This document shows positions 7,161-25,507 of a DNA stretch of 64,000 nucleotides, one piece after another. The DNA is from Psychroserpens algicola (GTDB taxonomy: Bacteria; Bacteroidota; Bacteroidia; Flavobacteriales; Flavobacteriaceae), in NCBI RefSeq assembly GCF_014526325.1, contig NZ_JACNMJ010000001.1, positions 124,001 to 188,000 on the forward strand. The letters run 5' to 3'. A program made the translations under genes and the position numbers. Position 1 is the first letter of the stretch; the number at the start of each line of letters is the position of its first letter. The notes beneath the pieces were generated by a model. It searched no databases. It saw only the letters and a list, made by a program, of their open reading frames with translations, and was not told the origin of the DNA.

Positions 7161-7162
7161 TC

Positions 7163-7193
7163 AAAAACCCGATTCAGATGAATCGGGTTTTTT
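7163..7193 (+). terminator. Rho-independent terminator after tRNA-Phe
   Basis: A 12-bp stem, AAAACCCGATTC (7164-7175) with GAATCGGGTTTT (7180-7191), four-base loop AGAT, and a run of T. It lies three bases after the tRNA CCA end. Confidence 0.92.
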
Positions 7194-7483
7194 GGTTATT
7201 ACACTTATTTTTATGGCTGGATTAGAAATATCACTTCAATTTCGAACAGCCATTTACCTCACACTTCTGCATAAAATGGATAAACCCTCACTAGCCTTAT
7301 AAATTTATTAATCAAAATTTCTACACTTGAACATCATAATAATACATTGTTAAAAAACTGATTATCAATATTATAAATAAATGTTCCCACAATTGAATTT
7401 AGCTTAATAGGCAAAAGTTAATCAACAAAATGTACCGCAAAAATTAATTTTAGTGCTGCAAATGATTTTGCCAAAATAAAACT
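7194..7483 (+). other. ilvD upstream region; weak candidate leader ORFs, no clear promoter
   Basis: These 290 bp lie between the tRNA terminator and ilvD and should hold the ilv operon promoter, yet no good TAnnTTTG box with a -33 partner was found; the best is TGATTTTG at 7464-7471, implausibly close to the start. A 29-codon ORF at 7213-7302 has seven Leu and two Ile codons. A short frame at 7327-7353 (TTG start) has four Ile codons in a row (ATC ATA ATA ATA) two codons before its stop. No GC-rich hairpin followed by T was seen, so an attenuator is possible but unproven. Confidence 0.3.
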
Positions 7484-13080: not shown

Positions 13081-14349
13081 ATGGAAAACACTACAACCAC
13101 ATACAAACCAGCCTTAAAAGCGATTGAAGCTGCTGCTGAAAAATTAAAAGGAATAGCTTCGATCACGCCTTTAATTAAAAACGCACATTATTCTAAGCAG
13201 TTTGGTGCTAATATTTTCTTTAAAAGAGAAGATTTACAAGAGGTGCGTTCGTATAAAATACGTGGTGCATATAATAAAATCTCATCCTTAACAGCCTCCC
13301 AAATAGAAAATGAAATTGTATGTGCTAGTGCTGGAAACCATGCTCAAGGTGTGGCTATTTCATGTAAACTATTAAAAATCAAGGGCACTATTTTTATGCC
13401 TTCACCAACACCAAACCAAAAAATTGAACAGGTCAAAATGTTTGGTGAAGACTACATCGATGTGATTTTGGTTGGCGATACCTTTGATGATGCCTATCAT
13501 GCTGCTATGGAGACATCTGAACGTTTAAACAAAACGTTTATCCATCCGTTTAATGATGAAAAAGTTATTGAAGGACAAGCAACTGTTGGCTTAGAGATTA
13601 TTGACCAAGCAAAAACACATCCTATTCATTATGTGTTTGTTCCTATTGGTGGTGGAGGTTTATCCGCAGGACTATCGAGTGTTTTTAAAATCTTATCACC
13701 TCAAACAAAAATCATTGGCGTCGAACCTAAAGGTGCACCATCCATGTTGACCTCCTTAAAAAACAATCGAAACACCGAACTTAAATCTATCGAAAACTTT
13801 GTAGATGGCGCAGCCGTAAAACGTGTTGGTGATTTAAATTTTGCTATCTGTAAAGAGACCTTAAGCGATGTGGTTACTGTTGATGAAGGTAAAATTTGTC
13901 AGACTATTTTAGATTTATATAATAAAGATGCCATTGTAGTAGAGCCTGCAGGTGCTTTGAGTATTTCTGCACTTGAGCAATTTTCAGATGACATTAAAGA
14001 TAAAAATGTCGTATGTGTAATTAGCGGCAGCAACAATGATATCACACGTACTGCAGAAATTAAAGAACGCGCTCTACTCTATGCAAATCTGAAACATTAT
14101 TTCATTATAAAATTCCCGCAACGTGCCGGAGCTTTACGTGAATTTGTGGTCGATATCTTAGGCCCAACAGACGACATTACCCATTTTGAATATACTAAAA
14201 AGGTAAATCGCGAAAATGATGTTGCTGTTGTTGGTTTAGAACTCAAGTCTCCTTCAGATTTAGAACCTTTAATTACTAAAATGAAACTTCATAATTTTTA
14301 TGGTGATTATCTAAACGATAAACCCGATTTATTTCAATTCTTAGTATAA
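13081..14349 (+). CDS. ilvA: Threonine dehydratase IlvA (biosynthetic)
   Basis: A 422-residue PLP enzyme making 2-ketobutyrate from threonine, the entry step to isoleucine. The PLP Lys is K59 (EVRSYKIRGAY), SAGNHAQG follows at about 91-98, and the phosphate-binding GGGGLSAG is near 189. After the catalytic core there is one ACT-like regulatory domain (about residues 330-422, FIIKFPQRAGALREFV). The E. coli enzyme has two such subdomains, so isoleucine control here should be of the short-form type. It is the last ilv gene and has no obvious terminator; gapN has its own promoter just after. Confidence 0.94.
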   Translation: MENTTTTYKPALKAIEAAAEKLKGIASITPLIKNAHYSKQFGANIFFKREDLQEVRSYKIRGAYNKISSLTASQIENEIVCASAGNHAQGVAISCKLLKIKGTIFMPSPTPNQKIEQVKMFGEDYIDVILVGDTFDDAYHAAMETSERLNKTFIHPFNDEKVIEGQATVGLEIIDQAKTHPIHYVFVPIGGGGLSAGLSSVFKILSPQTKIIGVEPKGAPSMLTSLKNNRNTELKSIENFVDGAAVKRVGDLNFAICKETLSDVVTVDEGKICQTILDLYNKDAIVVEPAGALSISALEQFSDDIKDKNVVCVISGSNNDITRTAEIKERALLYANLKHYFIIKFPQRAGALREFVVDILGPTDDITHFEYTKKVNRENDVAVVGLELKSPSDLEPLITKMKLHNFYGDYLNDKPDLFQFLV

Positions 14350-14356
14350 CTTAACA

Positions 14357-14386
14357 TTGACGTAAACCATTCAATAGATACATTTG
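14357..14386 (+). promoter_or_regulatory. Bacteroidota-type promoter of gapN
   Basis: TTG at 14357-14359 and an exact TAnnTTTG box, TACATTTG, at 14379-14386, with a 19-bp spacer. The predicted start near 14393 gives a 5' leader of about 34 bases. It separates the aldehyde dehydrogenase gene from the ilv operon in transcription. Confidence 0.78.
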
Positions 14387-14426
14387 GTACATTTATTTTT
14401 TAATGAAAACGTAAAAACAAGTGATT

Positions 14427-16019
14427 ATGACTTCAACATTTGTAGACATTCCTGAACAGTTTCAAATCAAAGACTTAACCCATCAATCCACCTATTTAGT
14501 TGATGGAAATCTAATAAAATGGGAAGGCGAAACGTCTGAAGTCTATTCCACAATTTCTTCAACTAAAGATTATAAACCAACCGTATTAGGAAGCATTCCT
14601 ACACTTACTGAAAAGGAAGCATTGAGCGCTTTAGATGCTGCTGTAAATGCTTACGACAAAGGGCAAGGCTTATGGCCAACAATGAAGGTAGCCGATAGGA
14701 TTGCTTGCATGGAAACGTTTGTCGAACAAATGAAATCCAAACGCGAAGAAGTCGTTAAATTATTAATGTGGGAAATCGGAAAAAACTTACCAGATTCTCA
14801 AAAAGAATTTGATAGAACTGTCGAATACATCTATGACACCATTGAAGATTATAAACAAATGGATCGCGATAGTGCCAAGTTTGAAAAACATGATGGTGTT
14901 CGAGCGCATATCAGAAGAGGTCCTTTAGGTGTTGTATTGTGCTTAGGTCCTTATAATTATCCTTTAAATGAAACCTTTGCCTTATTAATACCTGCCATCA
15001 TGATGGGTAACACAACTATCTTTAAACCTGCTAAACACGGTGTTTTATTATTAACACCATTGTTAGAGGCTTTTAGAAATAGCTTTCCTAAAGGTGTGGT
15101 TAATATTATCTACGGACGAGGACGTACTGTTGCATCTCCAATTATGCAATCTGGTAAAGTTGATGTATTAGCCTTAATAGGAAACAGCAAATCTGCAAAT
15201 GCCTTGCAAAACCAACATCCTAAAAGTAACAGATTGCGTCTAGTACTTGGTCTGGAAGCTAAAAACCCAGCCATTGTATTAAAAGATGCAGATCTGGATT
15301 TAGCTATCGACGAATGCATTGCTGGAGCGACCTCGTTTAACGGACAACGTTGTACCGCTTTAAAAGTGTTATATGTACATGAAGCCATTGTAGATGAGTT
15401 TAATAAGCGTTTTTCTGAAAAAGTAGATGCACTTAAATTTGGAAACCCATGGGAAAATGGTGCCAAACTAACGCCGTTACCTGAACCAGATAAACCCGCT
15501 TATATTCAAGAGTTGATTGATGATGCTCTGGCAAAAGGAGCTAAAATCATTAATAAAAAAGGTGGAAAAACTACCGAAAACTATATTTTCCCAGCTGTAT
15601 TATATCCCGTTTCAAAAGACATGCGTGTTTATGAAGAAGAACAATTTGGGCCAGTAATACCTGTTATTCCGTTTTCAGATATTGAAGAGCCTTTAGACGA
15701 CATGGCTGCTTCAAATTATGGTCAGCAAGTGAGTTTATTCGGAAAAGACATTAAAACCTTAGCACCTTTAATTGATACCTTGGTCAATCTAGTTTGCAGA
15801 GTTAATTTAAATAGTTCTTGCCAACGCGGACCAGATGTGTATCCGTTTACAGGAAGAAAAGATTCAGCAGTTGCAACACTGAGTGTGCACGATGCTTTAC
15901 GATCATTTTCTATTAGAACTTTTGTCGCATCAAAAGACAATGACTATAACAATGCTATTTTAAAAGATTTATTAGACTCCAGAGCTTCAAATTTTGTAAG
16001 CACTGATTATATACTTTAA
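14427..16019 (+). CDS. gapN: NADP-dependent glyceraldehyde-3-phosphate dehydrogenase (GapN-like ALDH)
   Basis: A 530-residue aldehyde-dehydrogenase-superfamily enzyme. From the ATG at 14427, the active-site residues are N177 (GPYNYP), E277 (LGLEAKNP) and catalytic C309 (NGQRCTA). The overall sequence fits the non-phosphorylating GAPDH branch, which oxidises glyceraldehyde 3-phosphate to 3-phosphoglycerate and makes NADPH. A GTG at 14421 in the same frame is rejected for the ATG. NADPH supply for the nearby IlvC, ArgC, ProC and GltBD steps is an attractive but inferred reason for its place here. Another aldehyde substrate cannot be excluded. Confidence 0.78.
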
Positions 16020-16108
16020 TGAAAAACAGTCTAATTATGAGATATTTATAATATTTAAGTCAATTATTTAGAATATCGTAAATCTTATAAGAAACTCGTT
16101 TTTAGGTA

Positions 16109-16138
16109 TTGTTGTTAAAAATTTAATATGTAGTTTAG
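16109..16138 (+). promoter_or_regulatory. Candidate promoter of the arginine leader/operon
   Basis: TTG at 16109-16111, a 19-bp spacer and TAGTTTAG at 16131-16138 (one mismatch to TAnnTTTG). The predicted start would fall at about 16141-16146, so the Arg-rich mini-ORF with ATG at 16143 could be almost leaderless. Confidence 0.5.
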
Positions 16139-16142
16139 CCAT

Positions 16143-16214
16143 ATGTTTACACTAAGACACAAATATAGAGTACCCAGACCCACAGGTCTTGATTTGACAA
16201 AACGCCGTCGCTAA
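16143..16214 (+). CDS. Candidate arginine leader peptide (23 residues)
   Basis: An ATG ORF of 23 codons plus TAA, upstream of the arginine operon. Six of the 23 residues are Arg: AGA at codons 5, 9 and 12, and the last three sense codons are CGC CGT CGC (16203-16211) immediately before TAA at 16212. A run of the end-product's codons next to the stop is the hallmark of ribosome-mediated attenuation. The ORF lies inside the loop of the 16162-16240 hairpin that precedes a T tract. I know of no described arginine leader of this kind in Flavobacteria; this is a proposal from sequence. No Shine-Dalgarno is visible, which is normal in this phylum. Confidence 0.6.
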   Translation: MFTLRHKYRVPRPTGLDLTKRRR

Positions 16215-16255
16215 TTCTTCTATTTAGCAAACTCTATATTCATTTTTATTTTTTT
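16162..16255 (+). terminator. Candidate attenuator: long-range stem with T tract in the arg leader
   Basis: AATATAGAGT (16162-16171) pairs perfectly over 10 bp with ACTCTATATT (16231-16240), followed at 16243-16255 by TTTTTATTTTTTT. The 59-base interior folds into two further hairpins: AGACC (16176-16180) with GGTCT (16185-16189), and GCTAA (16210-16214) with TTAGC (16224-16228). The Arg codon run and stop codon of the mini-ORF enter the second hairpin. A ribosome stalled on those codons would stop the closed structure from forming, while quick release would allow termination. The pairing is seen; the function is inferred. Confidence 0.55.
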
Positions 16256-16258
16256 ACT

Positions 16259-16445
16259 GTGTACAACTCAACATTTAAATATCAAACTCAATCCTTAATT
16301 ATCTCAACAGATAATCATAGCGTATTGCGTCCCATTTTGCGTCGTCGCCCTTAAGGGTGTACATCTATTTATGGAGCTTAGGTGAGTCCGGCTCTGCTTT
16401 CAAAAAACCAAAATCTTTACATATTTAACAAACACATCAATTACA
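16259..16445 (+). other. Second part of arg leader: further Arg-run frame and hairpins
   Basis: A frame from GTG 16259 to TAA 16352-16354 (31 codons; a TTG start at 16325 is also possible) ends Leu-Arg-Arg-Arg-Pro with CGT CGT CGC CCT before its stop. Within it ATTATCT (16298-16304) and AGATAAT (16309-16315) form a 7-bp hairpin. CCCTTAAGGG (16348-16357) is palindromic over the stop, and GAGC/GCTC (16374-16377 with 16391-16394) can pair. The last 50 bp before the GNAT start are A-rich and featureless. This may be a second, tandem sensing element, or a worn intergenic repeat. Confidence 0.35.
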
Positions 16446-17072
16446 ATGGAAATTGTTATTGCTAATAAATCGCATAGTATTTATGCAGACATTATTTGCC
16501 AAACTATTGCAGATGCCGCTTTAGTTAGAGGAACAGGAATTGCAAAACGCAAACCTGAATATATCATTACCAAACTGGAAAATGGCAATGCTGTGATTGC
16601 GTTAGATGGTGATAAGTTTGCAGGTTTTTGCTATATCGAACAATGGAGTCATGGGAAATTCGTAGCTAATTCTGGATTAATCGTTCATCCCGATTACAGA
16701 AATCTAGGCTTAGCCAAGCAAATTAAACAAGTCATTTTTGAGCATTCCAGATCAAAGTTTCCTGAGGCAAAAATATTCAGTATTACGACCGGACTTGCGG
16801 TTATGAAAATGAATAGCGATTTAGGTTACAAACCTGTTACGTTTTCAGAGTTGACCACAGATCAAACTTTCTGGAATGGCTGTCAGACTTGTAAAAACTA
16901 CGATGTTCTTCAACGAACAGAGCAAAAAATGTGCTTGTGTACAGGGATGCTATATGACCCTTCAAAAGAAACTAGTAACACACCCAAACATACTTATGAC
17001 AAAAAGGTATGGACCAGATTGAAAAACATTAAACAAACAAGATTCCTTAAAAAAGAAAAGAAAAATGAATAA
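16446..17072 (+). CDS. GNAT acetyltransferase-family protein; candidate N-acylglutamate synthase
   Basis: A 208-residue GNAT-fold protein. The acyl-CoA motif A (HPDYRNLGLAKQI) lies at about residues 80-92 with the R-N-L-G-L-A pyrophosphate loop. The C-terminal third carries CQTC and CLC clusters (about residues 145-148 and 164-166) that could bind metal, and a basic tail. It is the first gene of the arginine operon and overlaps argG by 8 bp. The operon has every other step from glutamate to arginine except the first acylation, and no argA or argJ is in the window, so an N-acylglutamate synthase role is the natural inference. Acetyl- and succinyl-CoA are both possible donors. Confidence 0.7.
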   Translation: MEIVIANKSHSIYADIICQTIADAALVRGTGIAKRKPEYIITKLENGNAVIALDGDKFAGFCYIEQWSHGKFVANSGLIVHPDYRNLGLAKQIKQVIFEHSRSKFPEAKIFSITTGLAVMKMNSDLGYKPVTFSELTTDQTFWNGCQTCKNYDVLQRTEQKMCLCTGMLYDPSKETSNTPKHTYDKKVWTRLKNIKQTRFLKKEKKNE

Positions 17073-18246
17073 CAAATTAGTCATCGCCTATAGTGGCGGT
17101 TTAGATACGTCTTACTGTGCCGTAAGTCTGAGTAAAGCTGGATATGATGTACATGCTGTAAGCGTAAATACAGGTGGATTTTCTGAGGAAGAAATTGCTT
17201 CAATAGAAAAAAACGCCTACAAAATGGGTGTGTCGACCTATAAAAACATAGACGCCATTTCATCGTATTACCATAAGGTTATTAAGTTTTTAATCTTCGG
17301 AAATGTGCTAAAAAACAACACCTACCCACTATCTGTTAGTGCCGAACGTATTATTCAAGCCATTGAAATTATTGAATATGCAAAAAGTATCGACGCTCAA
17401 TATATTGCTCACGGAAGCACAGGTGCCGGCAACGATCAGGTACGCTTTGACATGATTTTCCAAACCTTAGCGCCAAACATCAATATCATCACGCCAATTA
17501 GAGATGGTCAATTAACGAGACAACAAGAGATTGATTACCTCAAAGAAAACGGCATTGATATGTCTTGGGAAAAAGCGAAATATTCAATTAACAAAGGACT
17601 TTGGGGCACAAGCGTTGGCGGTTCTGAAACTTTAACATCGGAACAACCATTACCTGAATCAGCATTTCCTTCGCAATTAAAACATGTCGAAGACGAAAAA
17701 GTTACGCTTACATTTTCTAAAGGTGAATTGGTTGCTGTAAACGGAATAAAAAACAATCCAGAAGTCAATATTGAAGTGCTTAGCAATTTAGCTTCGGCTT
17801 ATGCTATTGGCAGAGACATTCATGTTGGAGACACTATTGTTGGTATTAAAGGACGTGTTGGTTTCGAAGCTGCAGCAGCCATCATTACAATTAAGGCACA
17901 TCATTTATTAGAAAAACATACGCTCACCAAATGGCAATTACAACACAAAGAGTACTTGGCTAGTTTCTACGGAATGCATCTTCATGAAGGTCAATATCTG
18001 GATCCCGTAATGCGAGACATGGAGGCCTTTTTACAAAGCAGTCAAGCAAAGGTTTCAGGCGATGTTTTTATCACACTTAAACCTTATCATTTTAATTTAG
18101 ATGGCATAGACTCTAAGCACGATTTAATGAATGCCCAATTTGGAAGTTATGGTGAAGAAAATAAAGGCTGGTCAGCTGATGAAGCGAAAGGGTTTATAAA
18201 AATTATAGGCAATCAAAACAAAATCTATCAACAAGTAAATTCTTAA
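17065..18246 (+). CDS. argG: Argininosuccinate synthase ArgG
   Basis: A 393-residue enzyme joining citrulline and aspartate with ATP. The PP-loop SGGLDTS is at residues 10-16 and the citrulline/aspartate-binding region HGSTGAGNDQVRF is near 112-124. Length fits the family (about 390-450). Its ATG overlaps the end of the GNAT gene by 8 bp, and argC starts 3 bp after its stop. Placement of argG before the early genes is common in Bacteroidota arginine clusters. Confidence 0.95.
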   Translation: MNNKLVIAYSGGLDTSYCAVSLSKAGYDVHAVSVNTGGFSEEEIASIEKNAYKMGVSTYKNIDAISSYYHKVIKFLIFGNVLKNNTYPLSVSAERIIQAIEIIEYAKSIDAQYIAHGSTGAGNDQVRFDMIFQTLAPNINIITPIRDGQLTRQQEIDYLKENGIDMSWEKAKYSINKGLWGTSVGGSETLTSEQPLPESAFPSQLKHVEDEKVTLTFSKGELVAVNGIKNNPEVNIEVLSNLASAYAIGRDIHVGDTIVGIKGRVGFEAAAAIITIKAHHLLEKHTLTKWQLQHKEYLASFYGMHLHEGQYLDPVMRDMEAFLQSSQAKVSGDVFITLKPYHFNLDGIDSKHDLMNAQFGSYGEENKGWSADEAKGFIKIIGNQNKIYQQVNS

Positions 18247-18249
18247 AGC

Positions 18250-19227
18250 ATGTTAGACATAGGAATCATTGGAGGCGCAGGTTACACCGCAGGAGAACTC
18301 ATTAGATTGTTGCTGAATCACCCAAAAGTCAACATCAATTTTATTTACAGCACCTCAAATGCTGGCAATAAAATATCAAAAGTGCATCAGGATTTGATAG
18401 GTAGCACAGATGTAGAGTTTACTAATAAAATTAATCCTAAAGTAGATGTGCTATTCTTATGTTTAGGACACGGAAATTCAAAAGCATTTTTAGAAAATAA
18501 TTCGTTTGCTGCAGACACTAAAATCATTGATTTAAGTAACGATTTCAGATTAACCAAAGACAATGTTTTTAAAAACAAAACTTTTATTTATGGCTTACCT
18601 GAATTGAATAAAGAAGCAATCACAAAAGCAAATTATATTGCCAATCCGGGATGTTTTGCTACGGCAATTCAATTAGCATTATTGCCATTAGCTAACGCCA
18701 AAATTTTACATGACGACATACATGTGAATGCCGTTACAGGAGCCACAGGCGCTGGCACTTCCTTATCGTCAACAACTCACTTTACATGGCGAGATAATAA
18801 CGTTTCACATTACAAAGCATTTATGCATCAGCATTTGGGTGAGATTAATCAGTCGGTGACATCATTGCAATCAACTTTTAATTCAGATATCAACTTTTTA
18901 CCAAACCGAGGAAATTTTTCCAGAGGAATTTTCGCCACATTATATACCAAATATGAAGGCAGCTTAAGTGAGGCCAAACAACTGTATTCAGAATTTTATA
19001 AAGCTGCAGCATTTACTGTAGTTTCAGACGAAGAGATTCATTTAAAACAAGTGGTAAACACAAACAAATGCATTCTTCATCTACACAAGCATGACAACAA
19101 ATTACTGGTAACCAGCATCATTGATAATTTGTTAAAAGGTGCTTCAGGACAAGCCATTCAAAACATGAATTTGATGTTTGGTTTTGAAGAAACTGAAGGC
19201 TTACAATTAAAGGCCAATTATTTTTAA
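18250..19227 (+). CDS. argC: N-acyl-gamma-glutamyl-phosphate reductase ArgC
   Basis: A 325-residue NADPH-dependent reductase making N-acylglutamate semialdehyde. The Rossmann motif GGAGYTAGEL is at residues 8-17 and the catalytic Cys is C135 (NPGCFATA). The family acts on N-acetyl substrates; given the ArgF' residue noted elsewhere, the acyl group here may be succinyl. Lies 3 bp after argG and 16 bp before proC. Confidence 0.94.
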   Translation: MLDIGIIGGAGYTAGELIRLLLNHPKVNINFIYSTSNAGNKISKVHQDLIGSTDVEFTNKINPKVDVLFLCLGHGNSKAFLENNSFAADTKIIDLSNDFRLTKDNVFKNKTFIYGLPELNKEAITKANYIANPGCFATAIQLALLPLANAKILHDDIHVNAVTGATGAGTSLSSTTHFTWRDNNVSHYKAFMHQHLGEINQSVTSLQSTFNSDINFLPNRGNFSRGIFATLYTKYEGSLSEAKQLYSEFYKAAAFTVVSDEEIHLKQVVNTNKCILHLHKHDNKLLVTSIIDNLLKGASGQAIQNMNLMFGFEETEGLQLKANYF

Positions 19228-19243
19228 AGACAACAAGAAAAAC

Positions 19244-20044
19244 ATGAAAATAGCAATCATAGGAACAGGAAACTTAGGAAAATCTATCGCCAAAGGATTA
19301 ATCACCAATAACGCAATCACCAGCTTGTATTTAACCAAGCGGAATCTAGACGCTATTCAAGAGTTTGATGGGTATAAAAATGTATATTTAACCACAGATA
19401 ACCTTGAAGCTGTTAAACATTCAGATATTCTGATTTTTGCAGTTCAGCCTGCCCATTTTGAGCATATTTTAAATGACATCAAACCGCATCTCACCGAAAA
19501 TCATGTGTTGATTTCAACCATTACCGGTTATGTGATTTCTAAAATCGAAAGTCAGCTTGGCACAAATCAATTTATCATTCGCGCTATGCCAAATACCGCC
19601 ATTGCCGTAGGCAAATCGATGACTTGTTTGTGTAGCAATACCAAAGGTGAAAAGCGCATTAAAATTGCTGAAGCTATTTTTAACCGATTAGGACATACAC
19701 TCGCCATTCCGGAATCTCAAATGCAAGCAGCAACTGTAGTGTGCGCTAGCGGAATCGCCTTTTGGATGCGTCTAATCAGAGCGACAACACAAGCTGCCAT
19801 TCAACTGGGATTTGATGCCAAAGAAGCTCAGGAATTAGCCATGTACACTTCCGAAGGTGCTGCCAATTTATTAATCACTAACGGAAATCATCCTGAGGAA
19901 GAAATTGACAGAGTCACCACTCCTAAAGGTTGCACAATTGAAGGCTTAAACGAAATGGAGCACAAAGGCTTAAGCTCATCTTTAATACAAGGCATGGTGG
20001 CATCGTTTCAGAAAATAAACAATATTAAAAAAGAACAGATATGA
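19244..20044 (+). CDS. proC: Pyrroline-5-carboxylate reductase ProC
   Basis: A 266-residue enzyme reducing pyrroline-5-carboxylate to proline. The dinucleotide motif GTGNLG is at residues 7-12, and RAMPNTAIAVG (about 113-123) and the C-terminal TTPKGCTIEGL region are diagnostic. It is embedded in the arginine operon, overlaps argD by four bases (ATGA), and so links proline output to arginine intermediates. proB and proA are not in the window. A housekeeping ProC elsewhere is possible. Confidence 0.93.
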   Translation: MKIAIIGTGNLGKSIAKGLITNNAITSLYLTKRNLDAIQEFDGYKNVYLTTDNLEAVKHSDILIFAVQPAHFEHILNDIKPHLTENHVLISTITGYVISKIESQLGTNQFIIRAMPNTAIAVGKSMTCLCSNTKGEKRIKIAEAIFNRLGHTLAIPESQMQAATVVCASGIAFWMRLIRATTQAAIQLGFDAKEAQELAMYTSEGAANLLITNGNHPEEEIDRVTTPKGCTIEGLNEMEHKGLSSSLIQGMVASFQKINNIKKEQI

Positions 20045-21171
20045 GTTTATTTAATGTTTACCCGCTTTTCGACATTACACCTGTAAAGGCTAAGGACGTG
20101 TATGTTTACGATGAAAACGGTGTTGAATACTTAGACTTATATGGTGGTCATGCTGTGATTTCTATTGGACATTCACATCCTAAATATGTCAAAAACATCA
20201 GCGATCAGGTTGCCAAACTAGGGTTTTACAGCAATTCGATTCAGAATCCGTTGCAAGTTAATTTAGCCGAAAAACTCGTACAATTATCTGGCTGTAAAGA
20301 TTACGAATTGTTTTTATGCAATTCTGGTGCTGAAGCCAATGAAAATGCCTTAAAATTGGCATCCTTTCACAACGGAAAGAAAAAAGTCATAGCCTTTAAA
20401 AACGGATTCCACGGTCGAACCTCAGCAGCCGTGGCTGCAACAGATAATGCAAAAATCATTGCACCAATTAACGCTCAGCAAGAGGTAGAACTATTAGACT
20501 TAGGTGATTTGGACGCTTTGGAAAAAGCATTAGCCAACAATGATGTTTGCGCTGTAATTATTGAATGTATTCAAGGTGTTGGTGGTTTGGATGAAAGTAC
20601 TGCCGAATTCTACGAAGGCATCGACAAACTTTGTAAAACCTACAATACCTGTTTTATAGCCGACGAAGTCCAATCTGGTTTTGGAAGAACTGGTGACTTT
20701 TTCGCCTTTCAGCAGTACAATGTCACTCCAGATATAATTGCTATGGCGAAAGGCATGGGTAACGGATTTCCGATTGGTGGAATTTTAATTCATCCGAATA
20801 TAAAAGCGTCTTTTGGTTTATTAGGCACCACTTTTGGCGGTAATCACCTAGCATGTGTTGCCTCGTCTACCGTTTTGGAAGTCATTGAATCAGAACAATT
20901 GCTGCAAAATGCAAAAGACATTTCTGCATATTTCATAGAGAAAGCACAAGGTATTTCAGCAATAAAACATCTAAAAGGACGTGGTTTAATGTTAGGTTTA
21001 GAATTCGATTTTCCTATTGCTGAACTTCGGAAAAAGTTAATCTTTAAGCATCAGATCTTTACCGGAAGCGCTAAAAACCCAAATCTAATTCGCATACTTC
21101 CGCCTTTAACCATTCAGAAAAAACATATTGACCAACTTTTTGAAGCTCTAAAAACTGAATTAGAAACGTGA
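20041..21171 (+). CDS. argD: N-acylornithine aminotransferase ArgD
   Basis: A 376-residue class-III PLP aminotransferase that makes N-acylornithine from the semialdehyde with glutamate as donor. The PLP Lys is K237 (AMAKGMGNGFPIGG), with NSGAEAN at 94-100 and DEVQSGFGRTG at 208-218. Length matches ArgD/AstC types. A plain ornithine aminotransferase (RocD) is less likely given the operon. Start overlaps proC (ATGA). A 61-bp gap with a repeat separates it from argF'. Confidence 0.93.
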   Translation: MSLFNVYPLFDITPVKAKDVYVYDENGVEYLDLYGGHAVISIGHSHPKYVKNISDQVAKLGFYSNSIQNPLQVNLAEKLVQLSGCKDYELFLCNSGAEANENALKLASFHNGKKKVIAFKNGFHGRTSAAVAATDNAKIIAPINAQQEVELLDLGDLDALEKALANNDVCAVIIECIQGVGGLDESTAEFYEGIDKLCKTYNTCFIADEVQSGFGRTGDFFAFQQYNVTPDIIAMAKGMGNGFPIGGILIHPNIKASFGLLGTTFGGNHLACVASSTVLEVIESEQLLQNAKDISAYFIEKAQGISAIKHLKGRGLMLGLEFDFPIAELRKKLIFKHQIFTGSAKNPNLIRILPPLTIQKKHIDQLFEALKTELET

Positions 21172-21224
21172 TTCAGAAGCATGCCATTTCAATTGAAAAA
21201 GGATTCAAATTCAGCTTGACCAAA
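21170..21224. repeat. Dispersed intergenic repeat (argD/argF' gap)
   Basis: The gap holds TGATTCAGAAGCATG near its start and GATTCAAATTCAGCTTGACC near its end. The reverse complement (GTCAAGCTGAATTTGAATC) resembles the GTCATTCTGAA...TTCAGAATC copies at 22193 and 22287, and the AATTCAGCTTGAC piece recurs at 22346. It appears to be one member of a palindromic family spread through this operon. Confidence 0.5.
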
Positions 21225-21232
21225 ATTAAACC

Positions 21233-22168
21233 ATGAAACATTACACCAACATAAAAGACATTAGCAACCTCACCGACACGATAAAGGAAGCTATTTTATT
21301 AAAAATGAATCCCTATGAGTTTTCAGATTTAGGACAACATAAAACGCTCGTTATGCTGTTTTTTAATGCCAGTTTACGTACGCGATTAAGTACTGAAAAA
21401 GCAGCTAAAAACTTAGGTATGAATGTTATGATTTTAAATGTAAATGACGCCTGGAATTTAGAGTTTGAGGATGGTACCATCATGAATGCAAATACTTCGG
21501 AACACATTAAAGAAGCCGCTCAGGTGATTTCACAATATGCCGATGTGATTGCTGTAAGAGCATTTCCGAGTTTAACAGACAAACAAAAAGATGAAAGCGA
21601 ATTGGTGATGAATAGCTTCATGACACACGCAACGGTTCCTATAGTAAATATGGAAAGTGCCACTGCACATCCTTTGCAAGCTTTAGCCGATGCGATTACT
21701 ATTTCAGAATTGACCGAAAAGGCGAAACCAAAGGTCGTTCTATCCTGGGCACCTCATCCTAAAGCATTACCTCAGGCTGTTGCTAATTCGTTTGTGGAAA
21801 TGATGCAAAACATGGCTATTGACTTAACCATTACACACCCTGAAGGTTACGAATTGAGTGAAGCAATCACAAAAAACACACCCATTATTTACGATCAAAA
21901 TGAAGCCTTAAAAGATGCCGATTTTGTCTATGTAAAAAACTGGAGCAGCTATAAAGACTATGGAAAAGTTCTAAATCAAGATGAAAACTGGATGATGACC
22001 AAAGTAAAATTAGGCCACGCAAAATTTATGCATTGTTTACCTGTAAGGCGTAATGTTGTGGTTGAAGATGCGGTTTTAGACAGTGAGCAATCTGTAGTGA
22101 TTCAACAAGCAAATAACAGAACCTTTGCTGCACAAATTGTATTGAAGCAAATTTTAGAAGAATTATAA
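21233..22168 (+). CDS. argF': N-acylornithine carbamoyltransferase ArgF' (predicted succinylornithine type)
   Basis: A 311-residue transcarbamylase of the N-acetyl/N-succinylornithine class, not ordinary OTCase. The carbamoyl-phosphate motif is SLRTR (47-51), the HPLQALAD motif is at about 146-153, and the HCLPVRR motif is near residue 270. At the position that separates acetylornithine (Glu92 in Xanthomonas) from succinylornithine enzymes (Pro90 in Bacteroides fragilis), this protein has Ser89, preceding Glu90-His91. Published mutants of that Glu to Ser, Pro, Ala or Val switch to succinylornithine, so I predict a succinylated substrate. The alignment is by eye. It makes N-acylcitrulline, which needs deacylation by ArgE. 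Confidence 0.92.
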   Translation: MKHYTNIKDISNLTDTIKEAILLKMNPYEFSDLGQHKTLVMLFFNASLRTRLSTEKAAKNLGMNVMILNVNDAWNLEFEDGTIMNANTSEHIKEAAQVISQYADVIAVRAFPSLTDKQKDESELVMNSFMTHATVPIVNMESATAHPLQALADAITISELTEKAKPKVVLSWAPHPKALPQAVANSFVEMMQNMAIDLTITHPEGYELSEAITKNTPIIYDQNEALKDADFVYVKNWSSYKDYGKVLNQDENWMMTKVKLGHAKFMHCLPVRRNVVVEDAVLDSEQSVVIQQANNRTFAAQIVLKQILEEL

Positions 22169-22179
22169 GATATGATAAT

Positions 22180-22352
22180 GACACACAGTAACGTCATTCT
22201 GAATTCATTTATTCATAGATATCTAATTTAAATAAAAGTATTCATGAATCTTTGATTTCAGAATCACATCAAAAAATAAAACACCGTCATTCTGAACTTG
22301 TTTCAGAATCACACACGAAAAACAAATAATGAAAAGCTATAACTAATTCAGC
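22180..22352. repeat. Cluster of palindromic dispersed repeats before argB
   Basis: This 199-bp gap has an intact hairpin unit, ATTCTGAA (22289-22296), CTTGT, TTCAGAAT (22302-22309), preceded by CGTC. A second copy begins GTCATTCTGAA at 22194 but its other half (TTTCAGAATCACA) comes about 50 bp later, as if interrupted by the AT-rich 22204-22250 segment. A third piece, AATTCAGCTTGACGAG, lies at 22346. No promoter box was found, so argB is probably read through from upstream. Confidence 0.55.
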
Positions 22353-22367
22353 TTGACGAGTAAAAGC

Positions 22368-23144
22368 ATGGAAACATTAAAAATCATAAAAATAGGCGGA
22401 AACATTATCGATGACGATACTGCGCTACACTTATTTCTGAAAGATTTCGCCACCCTAAAATCGCCTAAAATTCTGGTACATGGCGGCGGAAAATTAGCGA
22501 CAAAACTAGCACAGCAAATGCAAGTTGAAGTTAAAATGGTGGATGGACGACGCATAACTGACGCTGAGACTTTAGATATCATCACCATGGTGTATGCAGG
22601 AAAAATCAACAAGTCCATTGTAGCACAATTACAAGCTCACCAATGTAATGCTATTGGGTTTTCTGGAGCCGATGGCAACACCATAGTTTCCCAAAAAAGA
22701 CCTGTCACAACTATTGACTATGGTTTTGCTGGAGATGTAAAACAAGTCAATACAAAACCTTTAGAGTTACTGTTAAAAAACGATTTAACACCTGTATTTT
22801 GTGCGATGACTCACGATGAAAACGGACAATTATTAAATACCAATGCTGATACCATAGCTTCTGAATTAGCCATAGGCTTATCCGAAATTTTCAATGTAGA
22901 ATTGTATTACTGCTTCGAGAAAAATGGCGTTTTAAACGATGTAAATAACGACGACTCTGTTATCGAATTAATTACACCTGATACTATTCAGCAATTAATA
23001 GATGACCACATTATTTTTGAAGGTATGCTACCAAAAATTAAAAACTGTTTACATGCTGTTTCGAATCGAGTTTCAAAAGTTTGTATTGGCAAATCGGATA
23101 TGCTTTTCAATAAAAATAACAAACACACAACCATTACAAGATGA
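22368..23144 (+). CDS. argB: N-acylglutamate kinase ArgB
   Basis: A 258-residue amino-acid-kinase-fold enzyme phosphorylating N-acylglutamate. The first Gly-rich motif KIGGNIID follows the start and the second, HGGGKLATKL, is at about 40-49. I use the ATG at 22368; an in-frame TTG at 22353 falls in the repeat and is rejected. ArgB is often the arginine-feedback step in cyclic pathways, but the N-terminal helix that marks arginine-sensitive kinases is absent here, so feedback insensitivity is likely (inference). Its stop overlaps argE by four bases. Confidence 0.93.
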   Translation: METLKIIKIGGNIIDDDTALHLFLKDFATLKSPKILVHGGGKLATKLAQQMQVEVKMVDGRRITDAETLDIITMVYAGKINKSIVAQLQAHQCNAIGFSGADGNTIVSQKRPVTTIDYGFAGDVKQVNTKPLELLLKNDLTPVFCAMTHDENGQLLNTNADTIASELAIGLSEIFNVELYYCFEKNGVLNDVNNDDSVIELITPDTIQQLIDDHIIFEGMLPKIKNCLHAVSNRVSKVCIGKSDMLFNKNNKHTTITR

Positions 23145-24202
23145 TAGATAAATTAACAACAAGAGCAATTCAGCTGTTAAAAGCGCTCATTGAAACACCG
23201 TCCTTTTCTTCGGAAGAAGACAAAACTGCGCAACATATCGAGCAATGGTTTAGCCATCAAAACATCGCGTTTAAACGAACAAAAAATAACATTTGGGCAA
23301 CGAACAAATATTTTGACGACAGCAAACCCACACTATTATTAAACTCGCATCACGATACGGTAAAACCTAACAGCGGCTACACCAAAGACCCTTTTAAAGC
23401 TATTGTAGAAGACGGCAAATTATACGGCTTAGGGAGCAATGATGCTGGAGGTTGTCTGGTGAGTTTGTTGGCGGCTTTTGGGTATTTTTATAATAAAAAG
23501 AACCTAAATTACAATCTGGTGATAGTCGCTTCCGCGGAAGAAGAAAGTAGCGGAAACAATGGCTTAAACAGCATGTTAAGTGTCATTCCAAAAGTTGATG
23601 TCGCTATTGTAGGCGAACCTACTTTAATGAATTTAGCAGTGGCCGAAAAAGGCCTGGTGGTTTTTGATGCTGTTGTAAAAGGAACACCAAGTCATGCCGC
23701 ACATCCTAATGATGACAATGCAATTTACAATACGATTTCAGTTTTAGAATGGTTTAAAAATTATACGTTTGATAAATCATCTGAAGCGTTGGGCGATGTA
23801 AAATTAACCGTTACACAAATCAATGCCGGACAACAACATAATGCGGTTCCTGCAGATGTAAAATTAGTAGTTGACGTTCGAGTTAATGACAAGTACACAA
23901 ACCAAGAAATCGTTGCAATTTTACAAAAAGAAGCGCCTTGTGACCATATTATTCCGAGAAGCACAAAACTTAATTCGTCATCCATTCCTATCGATCATCC
24001 ATTAGTGATTGCAGGAATAGAAATTGGAAGGAGCACTTATGGTTCACCAACTCTATCAGACCAGGCTGTATTAAGTTGTCCATCTTTAAAATTAGGACCT
24101 GGTGATAGTACACGATCTCATTCTGCAGATGAATTTATTCATATCAATGAAATAGAAGAAGGCATTAAAATTTATATTAAATTATTAGAAAAGGTATTGT
24201 AA
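23141..24202 (+). CDS. argE: N-acylornithine/N-acylcitrulline deacylase ArgE (M20 family)
   Basis: A 353-residue M20 metallopeptidase. Metal ligands are in NSHHDTVKP (about 67-75), GSNDAGG (about 99-105) and the AEEESSG pair (about 131-137), followed by the dimerisation lid domain and the last His near HSADEF (about 327). In the context of ArgF', its substrate is N-acylcitrulline, releasing citrulline for ArgG. Overlaps argB by ATGA and precedes argH by 30 bp. DapE-type activity is unlikely given the operon. Confidence 0.9.
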   Translation: MIDKLTTRAIQLLKALIETPSFSSEEDKTAQHIEQWFSHQNIAFKRTKNNIWATNKYFDDSKPTLLLNSHHDTVKPNSGYTKDPFKAIVEDGKLYGLGSNDAGGCLVSLLAAFGYFYNKKNLNYNLVIVASAEEESSGNNGLNSMLSVIPKVDVAIVGEPTLMNLAVAEKGLVVFDAVVKGTPSHAAHPNDDNAIYNTISVLEWFKNYTFDKSSEALGDVKLTVTQINAGQQHNAVPADVKLVVDVRVNDKYTNQEIVAILQKEAPCDHIIPRSTKLNSSSIPIDHPLVIAGIEIGRSTYGSPTLSDQAVLSCPSLKLGPGDSTRSHSADEFIHINEIEEGIKIYIKLLEKVL

Positions 24203-24232
24203 AAAAGAGTCCAAAACAAAAAAAATCAAATT

Positions 24233-25507
24233 ATGAAACTCTGGGATAAAGGCATAAGTATCGACAAAAAAATTGAACAATTCACAGTTGGAAACGATAG
24301 AGAAATTGACTTACATATTGCAAAATACGATGTACAGGCATCCTTAGCACATGCCATCATGCTGGCGTCTATAGGGATTATTTCTTCGGAAGAATTACAG
24401 CAACTCAAAAACGGACTACACCTCCTTTCTGAAGCGATTGAAAATGGCACGTTTAGTATTGAGGCAGCATTTGAAGATGTACATTCAAAAATTGAATATG
24501 AACTAACACAATCCCTTGGTGAAGTTGGTAAAAAAATCCATACAGCACGCTCCAGAAACGATCAAGTTTTAGTGGCGCTTCACTTGTACTACAAAGACAA
24601 TTTAAATGAGATTCACCAAAAAACCAAAACACTTTTTGACACACTTCTTAGTTTAGCAGACACACATAAAAAGGCTTTACTTCCAGGATATACGCATTTG
24701 CAGGTTGCCATGCCTTCTTCTTTTGGATTATGGTTTTCGGCTTATGCAGAGTTACTGATTGATGATCTTTACGTTCTTAAGTCTGTTTCAAAAATTGTAG
24801 ACCAAAACCCTTTAGGTTCTGCAGCTGGTTATGGCAGCTCATTTCCTATTGACAGAACCATTACTACCAGAGAATTAGGCTTTGCTACCTTAAAATACAA
24901 TGTGGTTGCTGCACAATTGAGCAGAGGCAAAAGTGAACGTGCTATAGCAAGTGCTTTAGGAGGTTTGTGTAATACAATGTCTCGATTTGCTATGGATATT
25001 TGCCTATATATGAGTCAGAATTTTGGGTTTATCAGTTTCCCAGATGAACTAACTACAGGAAGTAGTATTATGCCTCACAAAAAGAATCCTGATGTATTTG
25101 AACTCATCAGAGGTAAAGCTAATAAGATTCAAGCTTTACATACTGAAATGCTCTTAATTACTAATAATCTTCCGAGTGGTTACCATAGAGATTTTCAGTT
25201 ACTGAAAGAAAACATCATTAATGCTTTTGAAGATGTAAAAGATATTTTAGACATTTTTAATTATGCCATTCAGCAAATTATAGTGCAAAATATTGACCTC
25301 AACGATGACAAATACAAATATTTATTTACAGTAGACAGCATCAATAATCTTGTTGTTGATGGAATGAGCTTTAGAGAGGCTTATCAAAACATAGGCAAGC
25401 AAGTACAAGATAACACCTATCAGCCAGACTTAGGAAAAGAGCATTCGCACATTGGCAGTATACATAATTTATGCTTAGATGACATTCGGAATAAGTTTCC
25501 AGAATAA
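24233..25507 (+). CDS. argH: Argininosuccinate lyase ArgH
   Basis: A 424-residue fumarase/aspartase-superfamily enzyme splitting argininosuccinate into arginine and fumarate. The signature GSSIMPHKKNPD lies near residue 281, TARSRNDQV is at about 103-111, and PGYTHLQ is near 147. Length is slightly short of the usual 450-460, mainly at the C-terminus, as in other Bacteroidota. It ends the arginine operon; a small AATTTTATAAAATT palindrome follows at about 25533, too weak to call a terminator. Confidence 0.94.
   Translation: MKLWDKGISIDKKIEQFTVGNDREIDLHIAKYDVQASLAHAIMLASIGIISSEELQQLKNGLHLLSEAIENGTFSIEAAFEDVHSKIEYELTQSLGEVGKKIHTARSRNDQVLVALHLYYKDNLNEIHQKTKTLFDTLLSLADTHKKALLPGYTHLQVAMPSSFGLWFSAYAELLIDDLYVLKSVSKIVDQNPLGSAAGYGSSFPIDRTITTRELGFATLKYNVVAAQLSRGKSERAIASALGGLCNTMSRFAMDICLYMSQNFGFISFPDELTTGSSIMPHKKNPDVFELIRGKANKIQALHTEMLLITNNLPSGYHRDFQLLKENIINAFEDVKDILDIFNYAIQQIIVQNIDLNDDKYKYLFTVDSINNLVVDGMSFREAYQNIGKQVQDNTYQPDLGKEHSHIGSIHNLCLDDIRNKFPE

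What the first reader, a model, noticed from the sequence alone, without database searches (positions are those of the whole stretch)
16143..16255. Candidate arginine attenuator: leader peptide ending in Arg-Arg-Arg-stop inside a terminator-like fold
Seen: a 23-codon ORF upstream of the arginine operon has six Arg codons, the last three (CGC CGT CGC) directly before TAA. A perfect 10-bp stem (16162-16171 with 16231-16240), followed by T5-A-T7, encloses the Arg codons, with two inner hairpins. Known: amino-acid operons in other phyla use such leaders. Inferred: stalling on Arg codons blocks the fold and allows read-through into GNAT-argG. CGC codons are unexpected in such AT-rich DNA, which adds weight. 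I am not aware of a described arginine leader of this kind in Flavobacteria.
Basis: partly seen in the sequence, partly recalled or inferred. Interest (0 to 1): 0.85.

Follow-up and report, generated by a model that had tools for sequence, protein, structure and literature searches.

The report
Two-part leader of arginine operon

Summary
In detail: ORF1 (ending Arg-Arg-Arg-stop), the perfect 10-bp stem and the T5-A-T7 tract are at the stated coordinates. Relatives support an arginine attenuator: an Arg-rich ORF1 in 89 of 123 leaders, terminal Arg codons 90% CGN against 31% earlier in the same ORF, and an outer stem in the consensus folds of five clades.

It is only half of the leader. A second ORF (16259-16354, ending LRRRP-stop) starts just after the U-tract. 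Of 877 small ORFs in the window, only these two end RRR or RRRP. ORF2's frame is open for at least 28 codons in 116 of 116 anchored leaders, against 9 and 7 in the other frames. It ends inside a conserved two-hairpin RNA (16344-16404), matched in 184 of 299 family genomes. Of 59 loci examined, 50 lie before GNAT-argG. Rfam has no match. ArgR was not found in 35 of 35 genomes. In 17 of 26 inspected leaders ORF2 stands without a detectable ORF1.

Best reading: two arginine-responsive gates in series. How the second acts is not shown.

The parts
16143..16214 (+). Leader ORF1, 23 codons, MFTLRHKYRVPRPTGLDLTKRRR-stop
   Evidence: Arg-rich ORF at the same place in relatives
16162..16171 (+). 5' arm of the outer (terminator-like) stem, inside ORF1
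   Evidence: perfect 10 bp with 16231-16240; clade-specific versions in relatives
16176..16189 (+). inner hairpin over ORF1 codons (AGACC/GGTCT)
   Evidence: a hairpin at the Arg codons in 4 of 5 clade consensus folds, not in the window's own clade consensus
16210..16228 (+). inner hairpin over the ORF1 stop codon (GCTAA/TTAGC)
   Evidence: in 4 of 5 clade consensus folds
16231..16240 (+). 3' arm of the outer stem
16243..16255 (+). U-tract (T5-A-T7), conserved in the alignment of 81 leaders
16259..16354 (+). Leader ORF2, 31 codons, GTG start, ends Arg-Arg-Arg-Pro-stop
   Evidence: TTG, ATG or GTG at codon -29 in 66 of 111 distinct leaders
16344..16362 (+). Hairpin I: 5' arm is the last Arg/Pro codons of ORF2, with the stop codon in the loop
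   Evidence: minimum-energy fold; core pairs almost invariant; one extension pair (columns 9:26) ranks third in the covariation scan, barely above background
16373..16395 (+). Hairpin II: GGAGCT-TA-GG-TGAGT-CC-GGCTCT; conserved A-GG-UGNGU-CC top on a covarying lower stem
   Evidence: columns 43:66 and 47:62 are the two top covarying pairs
16396..16404 (+). conserved single-stranded tail, consensus NCUUUCAAA
16446..17072 (+). first gene of the operon, GNAT-family acetyltransferase
17065..25507 (+). rest of the arginine operon: argG, argC, proC, argD, argF-like N-acetylornithine carbamoyltransferase, argB, argE/dapE-like, argH

Best explanation
This is the regulatory leader of the arginine operon in Flavobacteriaceae that lack ArgR, built as two arginine-responsive gates in series. 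It sits between the arms of the AU-rich outer stem and over the inner hairpins, so the terminator-like fold before the U-tract cannot close and transcription continues. When arginine is plentiful, ORF1 is finished, the fold closes and transcription stops near 16255. Gate 2 lies only in read-through RNA: ORF2 ends in Arg codons and Pro-stop that form the 5' arm and loop of hairpin I, just before the conserved hairpin II. Ribosome occupancy at the end of ORF2 decides whether hairpin I forms, and so how hairpin II and its tail are presented, most likely to a trans-acting factor. This tunes expression of the operon. Shown by sequence comparison: both ORFs, the CGN bias, the conserved RNA element, the arginine-operon context and no detectable ArgR. 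Inferred: stalling on uncharged tRNA-Arg, termination at the U-tract, and every functional step of gate 2.
For: Two adjacent RRR/RRRP-ending ORFs, the only ones among 877 small ORFs in the window. ORF1-like Arg-rich ORF in 89 of 123 leaders; of the other 34, 26 were inspected with relaxed criteria, giving 8 more, 1 doubtful and 17 none. CGN share of Arg codons at the ends 0.90 (ORF1, n=89) and 0.88 (ORF2, n=116), against 0.31 and 0.18 earlier in the same ORFs and 0.28 in GNAT of 80 loci. Consensus folds of five clades all have the outer stem; 2, 4, 3, 6 and 2 pairs have a change on both sides (no shuffle control). Outer helix of at least 7 bp in 32 of 88, against 13.3 expected. ORF2 frame open in 116 of 116, against 9 and 7. 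pN/pS 0.76 in frame, against 0.89 and 1.10. Hairpin II: 0 of 500 shuffles reach the covariation score, 5 of 500 reach the 4 doubly changed pairs; its pairs are the top two in a scan of all column pairs. Model R1 in 81 of 81 sources, 184 of 299 family genomes and 7 of 7 GNAT loci of the genus. 50 of 59 examined loci lie before GNAT-argG. ArgR not found in 35 of 35 genomes.
Against: No RNA or ribosome data. The outer stem is AU-rich, lies 2 nt from the U-tract in the window, and in the Olleya-type clade pairs with the U-tract itself, unlike a strong intrinsic terminator. By duplex energy the arms are only modestly better than shuffles (median z -0.8, 13 of 89 below -2). The inner hairpins are not in every clade consensus: the Arg-codon hairpin is missing in one of five, the stop-codon hairpin in another. 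No antiterminator pairing was found; the one tested in the second element is at chance. The second element is not more stable than shuffles in the window (z -0.21). Hairpin I has little covariation: its core pairs hardly vary, and the third-ranked pair (24.2) is close to pairs outside the structure (about 22). The ORF2 pN/pS interval (0.65-0.88) overlaps that of one other frame (0.76-1.09). The tail after hairpin II has only three U in a row, so gate 2 is probably not an intrinsic terminator, and its output is unknown. 17 of 26 inspected leaders show no ORF1. Genus g127 (probably Flavobacterium) has GNAT but no such element in 11 of 11 genomes. At least 2 of the 184 R1-positive genomes (G148, G275) are chance matches.
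Confidence: 0.6

Rival explanations
1. Classical single attenuator: only ORF1 and its terminator regulate; ORF2 and the hairpins are a spacer or a transcript-stability element.
For: ORF1, its Arg codons, the outer stem and the U-tract recur in relatives. Peptide-level constraint on ORF2 is weak.
Against: ORF2 and the hairpins occur where no ORF1 was found and are matched in 184 of 299 family genomes. ORF2 has its own CGN-Arg enrichment at the end.
Confidence: 0.16
2. ORF2 is a termination-arrest peptide like TnaC or SpeFL: free arginine or ornithine, or the RRP end itself, blocks release at Pro-stop, and the parked ribosome controls RNA folding or Rho access.
For: The stop codon directly follows CGC-CCN in 79 of 111 distinct leaders; F at -3 and R at -6/-5 recur. 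[quoted passage not shown] that TnaC also ends Arg-Pro-stop is recalled. No U-tract follows hairpin II as a rule.
Against: 27 of 111 read Leu after RP and stop later. pN/pS of 0.76 is mild for an arrest peptide. Arg at -5/-6 and the CGN bias are explained by codon-based stalling.
Confidence: 0.15
3. Hairpins I and II are a metabolite-binding riboswitch or a protein operator, and ORF2 is only the host reading frame.
For: Near-invariant A and UGNGU loop over a varying lower stem. No Rfam family.
Against: The structure overlaps the ORF2 stop codon, and the ORF2 frame is kept in 116 of 116 anchored leaders. Small size. No ligand or protein known. The Cys-rich tail of GNAT is equally present where the hairpin is absent.
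Confidence: 0.15

Closest known systems
Ribosome-mediated transcription attenuators of amino-acid operons (trp, his, thr, leu type)
   Same: short leader ORF with codons of the end-product amino acid, overlapping RNA folds, U-tract, upstream of the biosynthetic operon
   Different: two such ORFs in series; the second ends inside a conserved RNA element with no regular U-tract; no antiterminator identified; arginine, in genomes without detectable ArgR
Leader-peptide elements noted in Flavobacterium psychrophilum (PMC9723704) and the Bacteroid-trp motif RF01692 (listed in PMC2864571)
   Same: leader-peptide or cis-regulatory control of amino-acid operons in the same phylum
   Different: the section and passages read name elements before pheA, hisG and four other genes, and attenuation before amino-acid operons in general, but not arg; no Rfam family matches this leader; genus g127, probably Flavobacterium, has a different arg leader
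carA leader of Pseudomonas aeruginosa (as reported in PMC4997734, passages)
   Same: leader peptide and arginine-responsive control before a gene of arginine metabolism
   Different: there arginine control involves ArgR and the attenuation is described as pyrimidine control
TnaC and SpeFL arrest peptides
   Same: Arg-Pro before the stop codon (TnaC ending recalled), possible ribosome parking at the stop codon
   Different: ORF2 stands before biosynthetic genes and is rich in CGN Arg codons; ligand untested
uORF plus structured RNA motifs of the survey PMC8632094
   Same: short ORF embedded in a conserved RNA structure before a biosynthetic gene
   Different: that paper's main text contains no 'Flavobact', 'Bacteroid' or 'argG'

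Membership tests
ribosome-mediated transcription attenuator | leader ORF with a run of codons for the regulated amino acid, conserved in relatives | tested here: met
ribosome-mediated transcription attenuator | terminator: stem followed by a U-tract after the leader ORF | tested here: inconclusive
   U-tract conserved; stem recurs with different sequences but is AU-rich, offset from or overlapping the U-tract, and weak by energy
ribosome-mediated transcription attenuator | mutually exclusive antiterminator pairing | tested here: inconclusive
   the one candidate tested, in the second element, is at chance; no systematic search was made for ORF1
ribosome-mediated transcription attenuator | read-through rises when the amino acid is limiting | not testable with these tools
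   needs Term-seq or reporters
TnaC/SpeFL-type arrest peptide | conserved residues upstream of a fixed stop codon | tested here: inconclusive
   stop directly after RP in 79 of 111, Leu in 27; pN/pS 0.76
TnaC/SpeFL-type arrest peptide | ligand-dependent stalling at the stop codon | not testable with these tools
   needs toeprinting
known Rfam cis-regulatory RNA (incl. Bacteroid-trp RF01692, Flavo-1 RF01705) | match to a covariance model | tested here: not met
   two matches at E 2.6 and 4.3 in 14000-20000, neither in the leader
riboswitch | conserved unpaired nucleotides on a covarying scaffold | tested here: met
   hairpin II
riboswitch | direct ligand binding | not testable with these tools
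   needs in-line probing or ITC
ArgR/ARG-box regulation | ArgR (PF01316) encoded in the genome | tested here: not met
   0 of 1 own genome and 0 of 34 others; the control search rings in 9 of 14 named genomes, Bacteroides ihuae among them

The most novel reading that the evidence does not exclude
ORF2 with hairpins I and II is a new class of arginine-sensing element, in which termination at Arg-Arg-Pro-stop inside an RNA hairpin is the signal and the near-invariant A-GG-UGNGU-CC hairpin is the receiver. It acts without an intrinsic terminator, is the shared core in the family, and is in many lineages doubled by an upstream attenuator (ORF1).
Probability: 0.3. Interest if true: 0.85.

Novelty: new variant of a known kind. 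Interest (0 to 1): 0.64.

Why it matters
It would show how a large bacterial family without detectable ArgR controls arginine synthesis. It offers a compact leader with two candidate arginine-dependent ribosome-stalling sites, and supplies a conserved RNA hairpin of unknown partner without a match in Rfam 15. Lineages with and without a detectable ORF1 allow the division of labour to be tested. The preference for CGN over AGA Arg codons at both leader ends raises a testable question about which tRNA-Arg isoacceptor reports arginine shortage.

Tried and rejected
Alternative linker pairing (UUCUA with UAGAA, competing with hairpin II) as antiterminator: complementarity at chance, mean 4.32 against 4.42 bp in shuffles, 94 distinct rows. 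RNAalifold on the first MAFFT alignment gave only a 4-bp CGCC:GGUG helix with no covariation; I judged that gaps in the hairpin loops had broken the register and built a model from 27 sequences with 4-nt loops.

Second copies of the element in the genome: matches to CTTAGGTGAGTCCGG with up to 3 mismatches (13 forward, 15 reverse) are no more frequent than the reversed control (16 and 13), and the one read closely (L092) lies inside a coding ORF. Three further stretches fetched were not read. Weak second R1 hits and other low hits (L147, L148, L150-L155, all below 27 bits) have no GNAT or argG nearby and are taken as chance; true leaders reach down to 26.2 bits (L146), so the score ranges touch. 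G567, the only hit outside the family in the order sample, lacks GNAT and argG.

Hairpin II as binding site of the GNAT protein via its CxxC...CxC cluster: the cluster is equally present in GNATs of genomes without the hairpin; no support. Hairpin II as an intrinsic terminator: consensus tail has only UUU; of the 12 leaders without a found ORF1 printed, only L112 and L127 have five or more T right after the hairpin.

Selected or dropped rows: alignment A1 holds 68 of the window plus 80 loci; L032 and L033 were missed by a regex and the rest left out were duplicates or near-duplicates, but R1 later found all 81. A4 used 100 sources chosen by me: 70 of those 81 (11 near-duplicates left out) and 30 others, without the low-scoring L131 and L134-L146, so it leans to strong matches. 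ORF2 counts drop 7 of 123 leaders without a regex anchor: L063, L131, L135, L138, L139, L143, L145; the anchor demands CGCC[CT], so Arg at position 0 and nearly all Pro at +1 are fixed by construction. The 123 leaders are not fully deduplicated (111 distinct of 116). R1 contexts were examined for 59 loci, not for all 184 genomes. Of one search's 115 genomes without a match, 95 are not listed and were not examined. One search was a poor paper search: its one useful term occurs in none of the 8 papers listed.

The best-explanation confidence was lowered from 0.62 to 0.60 on checking, because not every clade consensus has all three ORF1 helices and hairpin I covariation is near background.

Full report
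OBSERVATION. All coordinates of the finding hold: ORF1 16143-16214 with six Arg codons, the last three before TAA; a perfect 10-bp stem 16162-16171/16231-16240; U-tract 16243-16255; two inner hairpins in the minimum-energy fold (-22.7 kcal/mol, z -2.5, 3 of 200 shuffles as good). Of 877 ORFs of 15-40 aa on both strands of the window, two end RRR or RRRP. They are ORF1 and ORF2 (16259-16354), with 44 nt between them.

SURROUNDINGS. Downstream lie GNAT, argG, argC, proC, argD, an N-acetylornithine carbamoyltransferase, argB, an ArgE/DapE-type deacylase and argH. Upstream are an aldehyde dehydrogenase and a threonine dehydratase (Pfam), the latter at the end of what I read as an ilv operon (my reading). 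No Rfam family matches the leader. ArgR (PF01316) was not found in this genome or in 34 others, 31 with an R1 match and 3 of genus g127. The control search rings in Bacteroides ihuae.

RELATIVES. 80 loci with a GNAT relative were fetched, and with those a set of 123 leaders was collected (not fully deduplicated). ORF1: an ATG ORF just before the U-tract with at least 2 Arg in its last 10 codons in 89 of 123, and at least 3 in 84. Of the other 34, 26 were inspected with GTG/TTG starts allowed: 8 have such an ORF, 1 is doubtful, 17 have none; 8 were not inspected. RNAalifold on five clades of 9-14 leaders gives an outer stem with its 5' arm inside ORF1 and its 3' arm at or in the U-tract in five of five, a hairpin at the Arg codons in four (not in the window's clade consensus), and a hairpin on the stop codon in four (not in the Flaviramulus-type clade). 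Pairs with a change on both sides, over the whole consensus: 2, 4, 3, 6 and 2; no shuffle control was run there. The longest outer helix is at least 7 bp in 32 of 88, against 13.3 expected with shuffled 5' arms, and at least 8 bp in 13 against 4.1. By duplex energy the excess is small: median z -0.8, 13 of 89 below -2.

ORF2. The frame that leads into CGC-CCN of hairpin I has at least 28 open codons in 116 of 116 anchored leaders (7 of 123 dropped for want of an anchor), against 9 and 7 in the other frames. At codon -29 the start codons TTG, ATG and GTG occur 28, 20 and 18 times in 111 distinct leaders. R is commonest at -6 (74), -5 (66) and -1 (83), F at -3 (71); the R at 0 is fixed by the anchor. 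The stop codon follows the CCN codon directly in 79 of 111, and Leu in 27 (RPLG-type ends, many in Polaribacter). pN/pS is 0.76 (bootstrap 0.65-0.88) in frame, against 0.89 (0.76-1.09) and 1.10 (0.91-1.36), from 36 disjoint pairs: a translated but weakly constrained peptide. CGN share of Arg codons: 0.90 in the last ten codons of ORF1 and 0.88 in the ten codons of ORF2 before the hairpin CGC, against 0.31 and 0.18 earlier in the ORFs, 0.28 in GNAT of 80 loci and 0.56 in 12 window genes. CGG is 1 of 360 and 0 of 349 at the two ends. That CGU, CGC and CGA share one tRNA-Arg is recalled knowledge.

RNA ELEMENT. The stretch from ORF2's end to the tail of hairpin II is the best conserved part of the leader. 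Hairpin I (16344-16362) uses the last Arg/Pro codons as its 5' arm, with the stop codon in its loop. Hairpin II (16373-16395) has a varying lower stem (GAAC/GTTC, GAAT/ATTC, GAGC/GCTC; outer pair A-U, G-U, G-C, U-A) under a near-invariant A-GG-UGNGU-CC top, and is followed by NCUUUCAAA. On 100 chosen elements (99 distinct) 98.8% of cells pair. Four pairs have double changes (5 of 500 shuffles reach that); 56 cells have them (0 of 500); the covariation score is 0.199 against 0.104 (0 of 500); further pair types 11 against 9.6 (45 of 500). That alignment was fitted to the model, so it leans towards the structure. The first count, on a MAFFT alignment of 27, agrees (score 0.141 against 0.085, 0 of 500). 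In a scan of all column pairs of the 100-row alignment, two hairpin II pairs rank first and second (63 and 52). A pair that extends hairpin I and was not in the model ranks third (24.2), close to pairs outside the structure (about 22). Hairpin I therefore rests mainly on conservation and folding. The window's element is not more stable than shuffles (z -0.21).

DISTRIBUTION. Model R1 finds the element in 81 of 81 sources (27 of them used to build it) and in 184 of 299 family genomes at E up to 0.01, at least two of which (G148, G275) are chance. In an order-wide sample it is found in 23 of 296 genomes at E up to 0.001, 22 of them in the family; 19 of the 20 no-match genomes listed are of genus g127 and 253 more are not listed. 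Of 59 loci whose context was examined, 50 carry GNAT and argG downstream, 1 argG only, and 8 neither; these 8 all score below 27 bits, while the weakest true leader scores 26.2. In the genus, 7 of 23 genomes have GNAT, and 7 of 7 GNAT loci have the element. Of 20 family genomes outside g127 without an R1 match that I checked, GNAT is present in 2 (G055, G202) and argG in 3 (also G072). So in that sample absence of the element mostly goes with absence of the operon. In genus g127, 11 of 11 genomes checked have GNAT and no R1 match at that locus. Nine of these leaders (L168-L176) show a different short ORF right behind a TAnnTTTG promoter-like box (my reading). That g127 is Flavobacterium is inferred from its size and number.

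EVOLUTION. In 17 of 26 inspected leaders no ORF1 was found upstream of ORF2. In three of them (L058, L059, L133) a promoter-like TACATTT(A/G) lies just upstream of ORF2 (my reading of the printed sequence). ORF2 with the hairpins therefore looks like the shared core, and ORF1 with its terminator like an optional module. Gain or loss was not tested on a tree.

MECHANISM. Gate 2 is open. The tested competing pairing is at chance and no regular U-tract follows, so neither a classical antiterminator nor an intrinsic terminator is supported. A ribosome at the end of ORF2 would cover hairpin I and leave hairpin II free. The invariant top of hairpin II suggests a partner that reads its sequence. A bulged A two G-C pairs below a small loop resembles the MS2 operator; this resemblance is recalled and only a lead.

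PRIOR WORK. PMC9723704 (section 19 read in full, other passages by search) reports strong clues for leader-peptide attenuation before amino-acid operons in F. psychrophilum and names elements before pheA, hisG, ftsY, acsA, alaS and rimP, not arg; supplements could not be read. PMC2864571 (passages) lists Bacteroid-trp (RF01692) and Flavo-1. PMC8632094 (passages) has uORF-embedded RNAs, with no mention of Flavobacteria. PMC7366714 (passages) notes leader-peptide-like sORFs in Bacteroides. PMC4997734 (passages) reports a carA leader peptide in P. aeruginosa. PMC8429421 (passages) gives the TnaC mechanism. Searches that could have shown a described arginine leader in this group found none in the held library (one search was uninformative). 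The 2017 survey of 224 candidate RNAs is not held. The kind (leader-peptide control) is known; the two-gate form with this RNA element appears undescribed within those limits.

Noticed in passing
L168-L176, upstream of GNAT: Genus g127 (probably Flavobacterium) has an unrelated leader ORF before GNAT-argG (for example MNNNNLNITPISRTNRPSTSPEVRMLLV in L170) with a conserved ACTTC-TCCC-GAAGT hairpin just before a CGG Arg codon, although CGG is avoided at the leader ends of the R1 group.
   Followed up: partly
window 16446-17072: GNAT proteins of this operon carry a C-x2-C...C-x-C cluster in all 27 aligned and usually a basic C-terminal tail, with only weak similarity to solved GNATs (PA4794); substrate unknown, possibly the N-acetylglutamate synthase of the pathway.
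   Followed up: partly
L177, about 60-200 nt upstream of GNAT: A divergent leader with ORF2-like end RRRLLA-stop, a GACGTCGCC/GGCGT hairpin and a second hairpin whose loop lacks the UGNGU consensus (R1 20 bits): the architecture is kept and the sequence changed.
   Followed up: no
L010 and L013, between hairpin II and the GNAT start: A short palindrome (ATTCCTG...CAGGAAT) is inserted there; a sequence beginning alike is seen in L015 and L017.
   Followed up: no
window 7161-7483: No obvious leader peptide before the ilv-like operon (starts 7484) behind tRNA-Phe, so leader-peptide control may not be shared by every amino-acid operon here.
   Followed up: partly
L185, L186 (genomes G039, G072): argG operons in which the recognised GNAT is missing and a different reading frame seems to precede argG; an R1-like match of 23 bits lies about 690 nt upstream of argG in G039 (L149).
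   Followed up: no
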